The position numbers and the translations under genes were made by a program. Positions 18,166 to 23,148 of a stretch of DNA of 49,542 bases are shown here, piece by piece (the first letter of the stretch is position 1; every line of letters starts with the position of its first letter). The notes under the pieces are model-generated. The model made no database searches. It was not told the DNA's origin and worked only from the letters and a program-made list of their open reading frames with translations. The stretch is from assembly GCA_947498315.1 (NCBI GenBank), contig CANMLD010000010.1:1-49542 (forward strand). Reading direction: 5' to 3'. This stretch comes from Pseudomonadota bacterium. Lineage in GTDB: Bacteria > Myxococcota_A > UBA9042 > GCA-2863065.

Positions 18166-18806
18166 CGCTTGGACTCCTTCGGGGGACGCGTTGGTATACG
18201 CCCTTCGGCCTTGAGGTACTGAAAGAGAGCACCGAGGAAGAGCTCGGTGTTTCGCAGCCGCAAGTGCGGCTTGTAGATGCACAAGGTATGACCACGGACG
18301 GTGAGGTTGAACTCCTCCGACCGATACGCCTGCAGGTTGGTCAGCCCTAGCTCGTCGAAGTCGACCTCGGCCCATGGCACCTGATAGGCGGCGTTGTTGT
18401 CGCGCCAGGCCAGGAACGCGGGCGTGCAAATGACTCCGCTGCGCGAGCGAACCACCAGCCAATAGCCGAGGTTCACGAACGCGCCGATGGTTACGAGCGC
18501 GAAGAGCCCGCCCACGGCGCCGACCGCGACGTCGATACCCTCAGTGGCCGCTTCGTATGTCCAGAACCCCCAGATCCCGACCAACATGACGAAGTACAGG
18601 AGCAGCGCGCGCGGGTTCAGCGAGTAGGGGTAAGTCGCTGCCGGGTGTTCGGCCCAAAGCGTGGTGAAGCGCGGTACCGTAATCGGTGCCGCCACCTTCG
18701 CCGCTACCGCCTTCGCCACTACCGCCTTCGCCGCTGCCGCCTTCGCTGCTACCGTCTGTGCGGCAGCCACCTTCTCGAGCAAGAGTCCCGACCGCTCCAC
18801 GTTCAC
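18162..18806 (-). CDS. Unknown two-helix membrane protein with an Ala/Lys repeat
   Basis: Not recognised as a named family. The 214-residue protein has an N-terminal Ala/Lys/Val repeat (residues 13-40, [13 protein letters not shown]) encoded by a 15-bp DNA repeat. Two likely helices follow at about 66-83 and 93-119. The C-terminal half is soluble and beta-rich, including [14 protein letters not shown] and [11 protein letters not shown], somewhat like bacterial PH-type domains (inference). The GTG at 18806 overlaps the recF stop, and the gene's stop overlaps the murA start. It is therefore translated between recF and murA. This position suggests an envelope or membrane role, but no function can be assigned. 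Confidence 0.75.
18691..18765. repeat. 15-bp tandem repeat in the recF-murA spacer gene
   Basis: Four clear units of the type ACCGCCTTCGCCGCT start at 18691, 18706, 18721 and 18736, with a decayed fifth copy after them. Read on the minus strand they encode the Ala/Lys/Val repeat. The period is a multiple of three, so copy changes would keep the frame. Confidence 0.85.
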
Positions 18807-19876
18807 GTAACCACCTCGCCGGCGCGGATGGTAAGGCACGAAAACGGCGCGTCAATCAGGACGTGGCGACGGTCTGTCGTGGTGAGAAAGACCTGACCAT
18901 CGAAGGCCGGACCGCCCAGATAACGCATGAGCTCCGCGTTCCGGCTCGCGTCGAGCTCACTCGAGACGTCATCGAGGAGAAGGAGTGGGCTGTACCCGAA
19001 GGCATGCTGGAGGAGGCGGATTTCCGCGATCTTGAGCGCTAAGACCAGAGCCCGATGTTGGCCCTGCGACGCGACGATCCGAGCGAGATGACCGTCGATG
19101 TACACGCCAACATCATCGACGTGAGGCCCAGCGGTGGTCGTGCTCCGACGTCGGTCGTCGAGCCGGCGACGGCGTAACCAGGCGACGAGGTCTTCTTCTT
19201 CGGGGGAGCCCCCCTCGTACTGAAGCTCGACGACGTGTGCGCCGCTAGTCACCTCGGTCATGGCCGACTCGAAGAAGGGCTGCAGCTCAGCCAGATACCG
19301 GCGACGCCAGCCGATGACGCGAGCGGCAGCGGGGGCAAGCTGCTCATCGAAGGCATCGAGGAGCCGGTCTGGCCCACCGTCGCGGAGCAGTGCGTTTCGC
19401 TGCTTGAGCGCGGTCTCGTAGCGCTTCATGTCATCGAGACTCGCTCTGAAACGATTGAAGACAGCGCGATCGAGGAAGGTCCGCCGATGCGCCGGACCGC
19501 CCTTGGTGATGGCCAAATCTTCGGGTGCAAACAAAACGACCGCGAGCTGGCCGAGTGCCTCGGTCAACGACCGGGCCGCTTTCCCATCGAGGCTGACGCG
19601 ACGGCGACGCGCGCCGAGCTCGACGTCAAGGCTGCGGCGAATCCCTTCATGGACGATGAGGCCGTGGATACTCGCGTCGGACTCGCCGTGCCGGACTAGG
19701 TCAGCGATGCGGTGCGACCGGAAAGACTTGAGGCAGGCCATCACATAGATGGCCTCCAGGATGGCGGTCTTGCCCTGTCCGTTGTCTCCCTCGAGCACCG
19801 TAAAGCGGGCTGCAGGCCTCAGCTCGAGGTGTCTCAGGTTACGGAAGTCGTTTATTACGAGGCGTTCGAGGAGCAC
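18803..19876 (-). CDS. recF: DNA replication and repair protein RecF
   Basis: SMC-like ATPase that helps load RecA at gaps with RecO and RecR. The 357-residue protein has Walker A GDNGQGKTAI near residues 30-39, preceded by NDFRNLRHLELRP. The C-terminal signature region is ASQGQHRALVLALKIAE, and Walker B is LLLLDDVSSELDASR. The length is typical. The start is a GTG at 19876; the gene begins 45 bp after dnaN. Its stop overlaps the next gene in a GTGA. It lies in the conserved dnaN-recF order near the origin. Confidence 0.96.
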   Translation of the reverse strand: MLLERLVINDFRNLRHLELRPAARFTVLEGDNGQGKTAILEAIYVMACLKSFRSHRIADLVRHGESDASIHGLIVHEGIRRSLDVELGARRRRVSLDGKAARSLTEALGQLAVVLFAPEDLAITKGGPAHRRTFLDRAVFNRFRASLDDMKRYETALKQRNALLRDGGPDRLLDAFDEQLAPAAARVIGWRRRYLAELQPFFESAMTEVTSGAHVVELQYEGGSPEEEDLVAWLRRRRLDDRRRSTTTAGPHVDDVGVYIDGHLARIVASQGQHRALVLALKIAEIRLLQHAFGYSPLLLLDDVSSELDASRNAELMRYLGGPAFDGQVFLTTTDRRHVLIDAPFSCLTIRAGEVVT

Positions 19877-19921: not shown

Positions 19922-21043
19922 TCAGACCCGCATCGGCATGACGACGAAGAGGCTCCCCGCGTCTTCAGGGGACGTGAGGAGCCCTGGCGAGAACTGATCG
20001 GAGAGCGAGAGGTGCACGTTCTCGCCGCTGATGATGCCCAGTACGTCGAGCAGGTACTTGAAGTTGAAGCCGACGCTGATCTCGGCGGCTTCATTGTCAA
20101 CGACGAGCTCATCGCGCCCTTCGCCCATCTCCGGGTTCGAAGATGACAGCACGAGGCGCCCGGGAGAGAGCTCGAACCGAATGATGTTCGTCTTGGCCGA
20201 CGTGAGCGTCGCGATCCGGCGAATCGCCGCGACGAACAGGGCCTTCGCGATGGGCACGCGCACGGTGCTTCGCTGCGGAATGACCTTGGTGTAGTCCGGG
20301 AAGGTCTCGTCGAGCTGTCGGACCTGCAGGGTCACTTCGTCGTTCATGAAGTGCACGTTCCCTCGGTGGAACGCGACTTGGGTGTCCGGCTCGCTGCCTT
20401 CTAGGCTTCGCTTTAGCTCGTTCAGCGCCTTCGTGTGGATGACCGCCTCGGCGGCCGGCCCAAACTCGCCAGTGTCACCGCCGAGCGCCTCCGCTTTTGA
20501 GAGCCGGTGCCCATCGGTCGACACCATCGTGAGGCGAACCTCGTTCTCTTCACGAACCACGCGGAGGAAGACCCCGTTGAGACTGGGGCGCGTCTCATCG
20601 TGGCTGACGCTGAAGAGCGTACGGTCGACGAGGTCAGAGAGGAGGCGCTTCGGGATGCGGAAGTACTTGAGCCCCTCCGGTTGCGTACGTTCCGGAAAGT
20701 CGCCCGGCGGCAGTCCTGCGAGCTTGAAACGCGACGACCCACACCGGACCTCGACCCAGTGGTTGTCGAGAGCGGTCAGGTGCACCGGCTTGTCAGGAAG
20801 CGTCTTCACAACCTCGAAGAGGTGCTTGGCCCCAACGGTCATACGTCCGGCCACGGCGACTTCGGCGTTATAGTGGCCGGTGAGAACGACGTCGTAGTCG
20901 GTGGCGACGACGCGAATCCCCGTGCTCGACGTCGACTCGATCAGCACGTGCGAGAGGATGTTCTGCGCAGTCTTGCGGTCGACTACGCCTTGAGCCTTAT
21001 AGAGCGCTTGCGTGAGATCGAGCTTGCTGACGGTGAACTCCAC
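19922..21043 (-). CDS. dnaN: DNA polymerase III sliding clamp (beta subunit)
   Basis: Ring-shaped processivity factor for replication. The 373-residue protein starts with a GTG, reading MEFTVSKLDLTQALYKAQG. It has three clamp domains and ends in the conserved FVVMPMRV, where the MPMR segment lines the binding pocket. The GTG at 21043 is preceded by AGGAG at a good distance. The open frame runs 19 codons further upstream, but without a family match. It follows oriC and is the first gene of the long leftward set. Confidence 0.97.
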   Translation of the reverse strand: MEFTVSKLDLTQALYKAQGVVDRKTAQNILSHVLIESTSSTGIRVVATDYDVVLTGHYNAEVAVAGRMTVGAKHLFEVVKTLPDKPVHLTALDNHWVEVRCGSSRFKLAGLPPGDFPERTQPEGLKYFRIPKRLLSDLVDRTLFSVSHDETRPSLNGVFLRVVREENEVRLTMVSTDGHRLSKAEALGGDTGEFGPAAEAVIHTKALNELKRSLEGSEPDTQVAFHRGNVHFMNDEVTLQVRQLDETFPDYTKVIPQRSTVRVPIAKALFVAAIRRIATLTSAKTNIIRFELSPGRLVLSSSNPEMGEGRDELVVDNEAAEISVGFNFKYLLDVLGIISGENVHLSLSDQFSPGLLTSPEDAGSLFVVMPMRV

Positions 21044-21217
21044 GGCCGGGCTCCTGCTATGCCTGGTTGTGCACTCGAGGACGGGGTTGGTCCCCCGCAT
21101 CCCCGAGCTTCGAGCGCCTCCATTCCAAGAGGACTCGGGACGCTGCGGGCGTTGGCTGCTTCTAACGCAAAACTCCCTCTCCTGGAATCAAAGAACCAAA
21201 AGAGGGATAGATCGTCG

Positions 21218-21226
21218 TAGTAGTAG
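21218..21226 (+). promoter_or_regulatory. DnaA-trio element of oriC
   Basis: TAGTAGTAG is followed by GGCC-type sequence and then TGTGGAGAG. B. subtilis has the same order (TAG-like trios, GGGCC, TGTGGA box). The trio lets DnaA extend from the box onto one strand. Unwinding would then spread to lower coordinates, into the A-rich stretch at 21183-21206. Confidence 0.7.
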
Positions 21227-21230
21227 GGCC

Positions 21231-21248
21231 TGTGGAGAGCGTGGAAAG
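21231..21248 (-). promoter_or_regulatory. Two adjacent DnaA boxes next to the trio
   Basis: TGTGGAGAG (21231-21239) and CGTGGAAAG (21240-21248) read on the minus strand as CTCTCCACA and CTTTCCACG. Each matches 7 of 9 bases of TTWTNCACA. They sit head to tail directly beside the GC-rich link. Confidence 0.65.
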
Positions 21249-21316
21249 TCGGAAATTCGCCATGATTTCATGGTCATTAGAGGGGACCCACCTTGCGTCG
21301 ATTCTGAGGGTGGCGT

Positions 21317-21325
21317 TGTGGAGAA
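21317..21325 (-). promoter_or_regulatory. DnaA box, inverted orientation
   Basis: The minus strand reads TTCTCCACA, 8 of 9 to TTWTNCACA. It faces the six-box array that begins 25 bp to the right. Confidence 0.6.
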
Positions 21326-21349
21326 GCTGGGCACAACCCCCCTGCGCTT

Positions 21350-21416
21350 TCGTCCACAGTTTACCCACAGGCTCGTTCACATGATTTCTCACAGGGTTAT
21401 CCACGTTTTGTCCACA
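21350..21416 (+). promoter_or_regulatory. Array of six same-direction DnaA boxes spaced 11-12 bp
   Basis: Nine-base sites start at 21350 (TCGTCCACA), 21361 (TTACCCACA), 21373 (TCGTTCACA), 21385 (TTTCTCACA), 21397 (TTATCCACG) and 21408 (TTGTCCACA). Against TTWTNCACA they match 7, 8, 7, 8, 8 and 8 of 9 bases. Start-to-start distances are 11, 12, 12, 12 and 11, about one helical turn. Confidence 0.75.
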
Positions 21417-21571
21417 GCGGATTCATCGCAGACCTCGACGACGACGGTAGGTCACCGACCATGAGGTTGTCGCAGGCGACGGACGACTGATGAGTAGAGG
21501 TCGATCGAGAAGACCAACTGACGCTTGGCTTGCGAGGCTGAGCCAGGAGCGAGAAGCACCGTGTCGGGTGG

Positions 21572-22876
21572 CTAGATCCCCAGGGCGCGTTGAAGCTCGG
21601 TCACAGCGCGGTCCACCGAGGGATCGCGCTGATCCATGAGGTCTTGAATCTTGCGAACGGCCGAGATGACGGTGCTGTGGTCTCGGTTGCCGAAGCGATG
21701 GCCGATCTCAGGGTAGCTCGACGGTGTGTGGGTGCGAGCGAGGAACATCGCGATCATGCGCGGCAAGGCGATCGCACGGTGTCGGCGTTGTCCCTTGAGG
21801 TCAGCCGTGGTGACGTTGAAGTGTGCAGCGACGACCTTCTGGATCTGGCCGACGGTGATGGTGGGGCCCGCCGTCGAGATGAGATCTTTCAATACCGACT
21901 GCGCGAGCGCGATGTCGATCGTTTGGCGGTGAATGCGTGCGTGAGCGTGCAGCCGGACTAGAGACCCCTCGAGCTCACGTACGTTCGACTTGATGTTCTG
22001 GGCAAGGAACATGGCGACGTCGTCGTGGAGCGGGATCTGCTCGACCGATGCCTTCGTGCGAAGGATGGCGACTCGGGTCTCGAGCTCCGGTGGCTGAACG
22101 TCGGCGATGAGGCCCCACTGAAAGCGGCTTCGCAGGCGCTCTTCGAGGTAGGCGATCTCGCTCGGTGGGCGGTCGCTCGTGAGGATGATTTGGCGCTTGT
22201 CGGCGTGCAGGCTGTTGAACGTGTGGAAGAACTCGTCTTGGGTGCGGTCTTTGCCAGCGAGAAACTGGATGTCGTCTACCAGCAGAACGTCGCATCCACG
22301 GCGGTACTTGGCGCGGAACTCGTTCATGCGGTCAGCTCGGAGCGAGCTGATTAGGTCGTTCGTGAACTCCTCGCAGGTGTAGTACTGCACCATGGCGGAC
22401 GGGTTGGTCTTGCGAACTTGGTTGGCGACCGCGTGAAGAAGGTGGGTCTTGCCGAGGCCAACGCCGCCGTAGATGAAGAGCGGGTTGTAGTCGCGACCGG
22501 GGGTGTCGGCGACCGCCGCGGCGGCGGCATGCGCGAAGTGGTTCGAGGAGCCGACGACAAAGGTGTCAAAGGTGTAGCGCGGTTCGAACGAGTAGGTCTG
22601 CGCGGGTGGGCGGACCAGGGCGGACCGAGTTTCGATTCGCTCTCCGTCGAAAGTGAATTGGATGTCGAGCGGCGCCCCCTGTTGGGCGAGCTGGGCGCGG
22701 AGGAGCTCGAGGTAGTTGTCGCGTACCCAGTCGCGGAAGAACCGGTCAGGGACCTTCAACACGATCGCTTCTGTTGTCACCGCTTCGCAGACGATCGGCT
22801 TGAACCAGCTGTTGTACTGGTGTGCATCGAGCTGCTCGCGGATCGAGTAAAGCGCCTTGTCCCAAACTTCCAGCAT
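21572..22876 (-). CDS. dnaA: Chromosomal replication initiator DnaA
   Basis: Binds DnaA boxes and opens oriC. The 434-residue protein begins MLEVWDKALYSIREQLDAHQ, the domain I start. It has a short linker, then the AAA+ core with Walker A GGVGLGKT (137-144) and Walker B LLVDDIQF (198-205). The DNA-binding domain IV has the signature GNRDHSTVISAVRKI (396-410). The ATG at 22876 is preceded by GGAAGA. The frame stays open upstream, but that part does not resemble DnaA. It is transcribed towards oriC, so the right-moving fork meets it head-on. Confidence 0.97.
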   Translation of the reverse strand: MLEVWDKALYSIREQLDAHQYNSWFKPIVCEAVTTEAIVLKVPDRFFRDWVRDNYLELLRAQLAQQGAPLDIQFTFDGERIETRSALVRPPAQTYSFEPRYTFDTFVVGSSNHFAHAAAAAVADTPGRDYNPLFIYGGVGLGKTHLLHAVANQVRKTNPSAMVQYYTCEEFTNDLISSLRADRMNEFRAKYRRGCDVLLVDDIQFLAGKDRTQDEFFHTFNSLHADKRQIILTSDRPPSEIAYLEERLRSRFQWGLIADVQPPELETRVAILRTKASVEQIPLHDDVAMFLAQNIKSNVRELEGSLVRLHAHARIHRQTIDIALAQSVLKDLISTAGPTITVGQIQKVVAAHFNVTTADLKGQRRHRAIALPRMIAMFLARTHTPSSYPEIGHRFGNRDHSTVISAVRKIQDLMDQRDPSVDRAVTELQRALGI

Positions 22877-23148
22877 GCTCTTCCGATACACCTTGTCCGC
22901 AGACGCAACCCTATGCCCTGGGCGTGCGTAACGGGTCGACTCGTGGTACTGCTGATTCGCCGGCACGACGAACGCTGACCGCCTTGCGGCCTTGCCCCAC
23001 GAGGTGGGGTCGAGCCGACGGGTGTTCGTTGCTGACGCCCGATTGGTTAGCACCGGGCTCGGAGGTGGCGCAAGCGGGTTTTTGTCTTTTCTCCTATCTC
23101 GTGGCGATCATTGGCGAGCTGCGATCACTTACGTGTGAGGAGCCGACC

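What the first reader, a model, noticed from the sequence alone, without database searches (positions are those of the whole stretch)
21183..21248. Complete origin-unwinding module: A-rich stretch, TAG trios, GGCC link and DnaA boxes
TAGTAGTAG-GGCC-TGTGGAGAG matches the order and nearly the letters of the B. subtilis unwinding module (TAG-type trios, GGGCC, TGTGGA box). An A-rich segment lies on the side where opening should begin. This pins the opening point to the dnaN side of oriC in a Myxococcota-like genome.
Basis: partly seen in the sequence, partly recalled or inferred. Interest (0 to 1): 0.7.

Follow-up and report, generated by a model that had tools for sequence, protein, structure and literature searches.

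The report
Standard DnaA unwinding module at oriC
This is most likely the spot where this bacterium starts opening its chromosome for copying; it is a known kind of module, but beside its standard three-letter repeats it carries C-centred ones that the usual definition does not count, and origins in other bacterial phyla do the same.

Summary
Confirmed. Between dnaA and dnaN the + strand reads TCG TCG TAG TAG TAG-GGCC-TGTGGAGAG-CGTGGAAAG (21212-21248): tandem DnaA boxes, GGCC link and trios, the published basal unwinding system (BUS). It meets the published search rule. TAG x3 beside a box occurs in 0 of 1000 shuffles of the gap and the pattern once in the genome. The least stable 51 bp and 101 bp of the whole window lie here. 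DnaA keeps the key base-capture residues. Two corrections: the TAG run is not kept in the two same-family genomes, although boxes, link and first trio are; and the tract may continue with two C-centred trios. That led further: in 90 distinct modules from five phyla the middle base of trios 2-5 is A 263, C 70, T 20, G 7, while trio 1 shows no C. This fits the published B. subtilis finding that C can replace the central A and conflicts with the 'middle must be A' rule. Within the window's own class the C preference is not visible. No experiment maps opening here.

The parts
21218..21226 (+). DnaA-trios 1-3, 5'-TAGTAGTAG-3' (trio 1 is 21224-21226, next to the link)
   Evidence: sequence; 0 of 1000 shuffles
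21212..21217 (+). candidate C-centred trios 4-5, 5'-TCGTCG-3', in register with trios 1-3
   Evidence: sequence; same kind of trio in other phyla; not supported within the window's class
21227..21230 (+). GGCC link between boxes and trios
   Evidence: sequence; same link in L025, L030, L066, L078, L084
21231..21239 (-). proximal DnaA box CTCTCCACA (2 mismatches)
21240..21248 (-). second, abutting DnaA box CTTTCCACG (3 mismatches), same orientation
21176..21226 (.). least stable 51 bp of the whole window, predicted opening site (21182-21282 is the least stable 101 bp)
21317..21416 (.). distal DnaA-box cluster: 21317-21325 (-), 21350-21358, 21361-21369, 21397-21405, 21408-21416 (+), each with 1-2 mismatches
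21572..23053 (-). dnaA (ORF as listed; the conserved part starts near residue 60)
19922..21043 (-). dnaN (ORF can be read from 21100)
18803..19876 (-). recF-like gene downstream of dnaN
   Evidence: Pfam SMC_N

Best explanation
This is the basal unwinding module (BUS) of the chromosome origin. Two DnaA molecules bind the co-oriented boxes at 21231-21248. Their AAA+ domains form the first base-capture pocket over trio 1 on the + strand. Further DnaA-ATP molecules add one per three bases along the + strand toward lower coordinates (toward dnaN), pulling bases out of the weak duplex 21176-21226 and holding the strand open for helicase loading. The distal box cluster 21317-21416 raises the local DnaA concentration, probably by looping. 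Shown here: sequence anatomy, rarity, duplex weakness, relatives, pocket residues. Inferred from B. subtilis work: binding, oligomer growth, opening, looping.
For: Exact order and spacing; rarity; least stable 51 and 101 bp of the window; box density 6 against 0.56; anchor on the dnaA strand in 35 of 94 dnaA-dnaN gaps of relatives against 2 of 94 on the other strand; residues equivalent to E183, N187, I190, R202, R206, K222, E228, R264 of B. subtilis DnaA identical; published mechanism (PMC8287927; PMC6669920 passages; PMC10721633).
Against: The TAG run is not kept in the two same-family genomes. 59 of 94 relative gaps lack the strict anchor. GC skew does not change sign at the gap within this contig. 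The trio-proximal boxes have 2 and 3 mismatches. N196 and E223 equivalents are D. No experiment.
Confidence: 0.86

Rival explanations
1. The working trio tract is longer than the three TAGs: TCG TCG (21212-21217) are trios 4-5, captured through the amino group of C. This extends the main reading rather than replacing it.
For: C-centred trios are the second commonest kind at trios 2-5 in five phyla (A 263, C 70, T 20, G 7; clustered counts); C replaced A in vitro and in vivo in B. subtilis (PMC10721633 section 10); Asn187 is kept.
Against: In nine class relatives C is no commoner than G over trios 1-5 (9 and 9); no C at trio 1 in Deinococcota; only trios 1-3 are essential in B. subtilis, so positions 4-5 might be free.
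Confidence: 0.55
2. The boxes are real but the TAG run is a chance trinucleotide repeat; opening is driven by duplex weakness alone, without trio recognition.
For: The run is not conserved in the same family, and loose NAN x3 beside a box is common by chance (103 of 1000).
Against: Exact TAG x3 beside a box is 0 of 1000; the same letters recur at the same place in distant phyla; trio-1 middle base is almost fixed.
Confidence: 0.08
3. The gap is a dnaA/dnaN regulatory region with DnaA boxes, and the real origin lies elsewhere in this genome.
For: In one Myxococcota family (f18) dnaA and the module lie far apart, so gene order is no guarantee; no skew switch in the window.
Against: In the f18 cases examined the module stays beside dnaN, as here; the strict module pattern occurs once in this genome, here.
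Confidence: 0.05

Closest known systems
Basal unwinding system (BUS) of Bacillus subtilis oriC (incC region, DnaA-boxes 6/7 plus DnaA-trios)
   Same: Two co-oriented boxes, 4-bp GC link, TAG-type trios on one strand, on the dnaN side of the dnaA-dnaN gap; a distal box group (PMC6669920 and PMC10721633 passages; relatives L025, L030 stand in for B. subtilis, whose own sequence I did not fetch).
   Different: Boxes spaced 9 bp rather than the 8 bp of L025; the trio-proximal box is the better match; TCG follows where B. subtilis has further A-centred trios; GC-rich genome.
Modules of Deinococcota (L066, L217)
   Same: CCACA-GNCC-CTA core in 69 of 111 genomes; many read CTA CTA CTA CGA, the same order as the window.
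   Different: There the C-centred trio 4 is usually followed by an A-centred trio; in the window a second C-centred one follows.

Membership tests
Basal unwinding system (rule of PMC8287927) | DnaA box with at most 2 mismatches; if paired, the second with at most 4 | tested here: met
   2 and 3 mismatches
Basal unwinding system (rule of PMC8287927) | 0-16 bp between box and trios | tested here: met
   4 bp, GGCC
Basal unwinding system (rule of PMC8287927) | at least three NAN trios in the right orientation | tested here: met
   TAG x3
Basal unwinding system (rule of PMC8287927) | DnaA with the ssDNA-binding residues (N187, I190, R202, E228) and arginine finger R264 | tested here: met
Basal unwinding system (rule of PMC8287927) | strand opening by cognate DnaA that needs boxes and trios | not testable with these tools
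   needs purified protein
Bacterial chromosome origin (oriC) | DnaA-box cluster in the dnaA-dnaN gap with a weak duplex | tested here: met
   6 boxes against 0.56 expected; least stable 51 and 101 bp
Bacterial chromosome origin (oriC) | GC-skew switch at the site | tested here: inconclusive
   no switch at 21 kb within the 49.5-kb contig; the assembly is in 328 contigs

The most novel reading that the evidence does not exclude
Natural origins in several phyla use DnaA-trios with a central cytosine (3'-GCT/GCC-5') beyond trio 1, so the working trio code is 'amino base in the middle' (A or C), with trio 1 strictly A. Origin finders that demand NAN truncate or miss such tracts, and the window's tract has five trios, not three.
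Probability: 0.6. Interest if true: 0.6.

Novelty: new member of a known kind. Interest (0 to 1): 0.42.

Why it matters
By itself the module is one more BUS. Its TCG trios led to a pattern that turns an open remark into a test. PMC10721633 says that C replacing the central A 'raises the possibility' that DnaA homologues read a range of sequences (section 11); [quoted passage not shown] Natural sequences show A first, C second and G nearly never, except at trio 1. If this holds at the bench, trio prediction in GC-rich bacteria must be revised, and natural variation gives ready-made substrates for testing base capture.

Tried and rejected
Idea that loss of Asn187 in DnaA goes with loss of the module: among loci with dnaN next to dnaA, 27 of 66 with N and 8 of 28 with another residue have the anchor (Fisher p 0.35); rejected.

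Idea that C may also sit at trio 1: in Deinococcota 6 of 111 genomes match with a non-T sense middle, none of the six reads like a module to my eye, and 7 of 111 have reversed-control hits; rejected.

A second, opposed module in the window: none seen by eye on the dnaN side. GC skew as an origin test: uninformative on this contig. TTWTNCACA finds no exact box in the window.

Weak points of the trio count. In one search one row (G590) is a 9-copy repeat, mostly at contig ends, probably not an origin; it was kept once. Some Deinococcota rows lose the register and supply T-middle cells. Related genomes are not independent, and clustering only partly corrects this. Genomes with reversed-control hits: 0 of 377, 4 of 201, 3 of 199, 0 of 111, 3 of 199. 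By presence per phylum and trio position (20 cells, read by hand), C occurs in 16, T in 12 and G in 5.

Full report
WHAT IS THERE. The gap 21044-21571 lies between dnaA (minus strand, 21572-23053) and dnaN (minus strand, 19922-21043), with a recF-like gene next. On the + strand it holds TAG TAG TAG at 21218-21226, GGCC at 21227-21230, and two abutting boxes at 21231-21239 and 21240-21248. In dnaA sense: CTTTCCACG CTCTCCACA GGCC CTA CTA CTA CGA CGA TCT. A distal cluster of five boxes with 1-2 mismatches lies at 21317-21416.

IS IT MORE THAN CHANCE. The exact pattern occurs once in the 5.0 Mb assembly, with none for the reversed control. Shuffling the gap 1000 times gives 0 cases of TAG x3 near a box, 2 for a four-word trio alphabet, and 103 for the loose NAN rule. 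With nearest-neighbour energies the least stable 51 bp (21176-21226) and 101 bp (21182-21282) of the entire window sit on the module; for 31 bp it ranks fourth.

RELATIVES. From 189 relative loci (120 of 137 relatives searched had a DnaA match, and not all of the weakest were fetched) I took the stretch downstream of dnaA. The anchor box-link-CTA occurs on the dnaA strand in 39 of 190 stretches (window included) and on the opposite strand in 4. Where dnaN follows directly it is 35 of 94 against 2 of 94; elsewhere 3 of 95. Halalkalibacter, a Thermaceae MAG and a Eubacteriales MAG share the letters TCCACAGGCCCTA. For the two same-family genomes dnaA was not next to dnaN on the fetched DNA (L083 for G001) or not found (G002), so I fetched dnaN. 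L220 (G002) reads AATCCACA-GGCT-TTA TTA TCC CTA and L221 (G001) reads ATCTCCACA-GGGC-CTT GTG ACT. Of eleven class loci looked at (L220-L229 and L084), nine could be aligned to the module with anchors that I chose by eye; L227 and L228 could not. Boxes, link and first trio are therefore largely kept, while the TAG run is particular to this genome.

PROTEIN. Against the B. subtilis DnaA of structure 8btg, residues equivalent to E183, N187, I190, R202, R206, K222, E228 and R264 are identical here; N196 and E223 are D. PMC10721633 (passages; sections 10 and 11) assigns Asn187 to the amino group of the central A.

MECHANISM. The reading follows PMC8287927 (abstract, parts 2-4 of the text and passages), PMC6669920 (passages) and PMC10721633. 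DnaA binds the tandem boxes, forms a pocket over trio 1, and extends along the + strand toward dnaN, opening 21176-21226. Binding, extension and opening are inferred for this organism.

THE C-CENTRED TRIOS. After three TAG the window continues in register with TCG TCG. The same appears in L084, L121, L138, L142 and L088, already at trio 2. To test this without choosing on trios 2 and later, I searched whole genomes for tandem box plus GNCC-CTA and read the next 22 bases: Myxococcota 18 of 377 genomes, Chloroflexota 12 of 201, Acidobacteriota 8 of 199, Deinococcota 69 of 111, Bacillota 14 of 199. Phylum names are inferred from the record titles of the centre loci and, for the first, from the titles. 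Over 90 distinct modules the trio-strand middle base of trios 2-5 is A 263, C 70, T 20, G 7. C against T+G is 70:27, while the same strings further out give 45:242. Clustering to 59, 52 or 43 groups keeps the excess (56:27, 48:25, 41:23). For in-frame sense-strand triplets of the form C?A or C?G the middle is T 246, G 60, A 2, C 0. Plain GC drift would be expected to favour the transition T to C, which is absent there. In Deinococcota all 26 matching genomes in the run G830-G857 have a C-centred trio at position 4 (25) or 5 (1), read by eye; L216 and L217 show that such modules lie between dnaA and dnaN.

LIMITS OF THAT RESULT. In nine class relatives of the window the trio-strand middle base over trios 1-5 is A 26, C 9, G 9, T 1, so no C preference is seen there. 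In the dnaA-anchored set of 47 stretches the excess is milder: sense-strand middles of trios 2-5 add up to T 123, G 34, C 22, A 9 (summed). In Acidobacteriota the C share alone is not significant (p 0.35). At trio 1 C is not found, although the B. subtilis assay tested trio 1. Whether the window's TCG TCG are bound is unknown.

IN PRINT. Library searches for DnaA-trio with Myxococcus, cytosine, Thermus and Chloroflexi, and for DnaA-trio since 2023, showed no report of natural C-centred trios in the passages I read or in the listings. PMC8287927 only suspects deviant trios. Supplements were not readable, so its list of predicted modules may include myxobacteria; the 2016 Nature paper is not held; subscription journals are mostly missing. 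Absence is weakly supported.

VERDICT. A well-formed, probably functional BUS: a new member of a known kind, with a side result on the trio code that deserves a bench test.

Noticed in passing
L210, L211 (3704-3795), L212, L213; partly L219 (Chloroflexota genomes G438, G456, G447, G536; G520): Two complete box-box-link-trio modules face each other over one shared weak core of about 92 bp in all, in 4 of 201 genomes (a fifth has one strict and one diverged half). In L211 they lie upstream of dnaG and rpoD, and all five genomes have two DnaA paralogues located elsewhere. A mirror-symmetric origin that could load one helicase per strand is a guess worth testing.
   Followed up: partly
L214, L215 (genomes G062, G173, family f18 of the same phylum): The module sits just upstream of dnaN while dnaA is elsewhere (about 110 kb away in G062), so the module travels with dnaN, not with dnaA.
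   Followed up: partly
window 22876-23053 (minus strand): The listed dnaA ORF has about 59 residues before the conserved DnaA start; a Met at residue 60 begins the part that aligns with B. subtilis DnaA, so the true start is probably near 22876.
   Followed up: no
L217, downstream of the module near 2445 (Deinococcota): The weak duplex after the trios is followed by GTCGTAGTAG, an opposed trio-like run without boxes.
   Followed up: no
G590, 9 places: A box-link-CTA-like string occurs in 9 identical copies, mostly near contig ends, in one Acidobacteriota-phylum genome; it looks like a repeat or mobile element rather than an origin.
   Followed up: no
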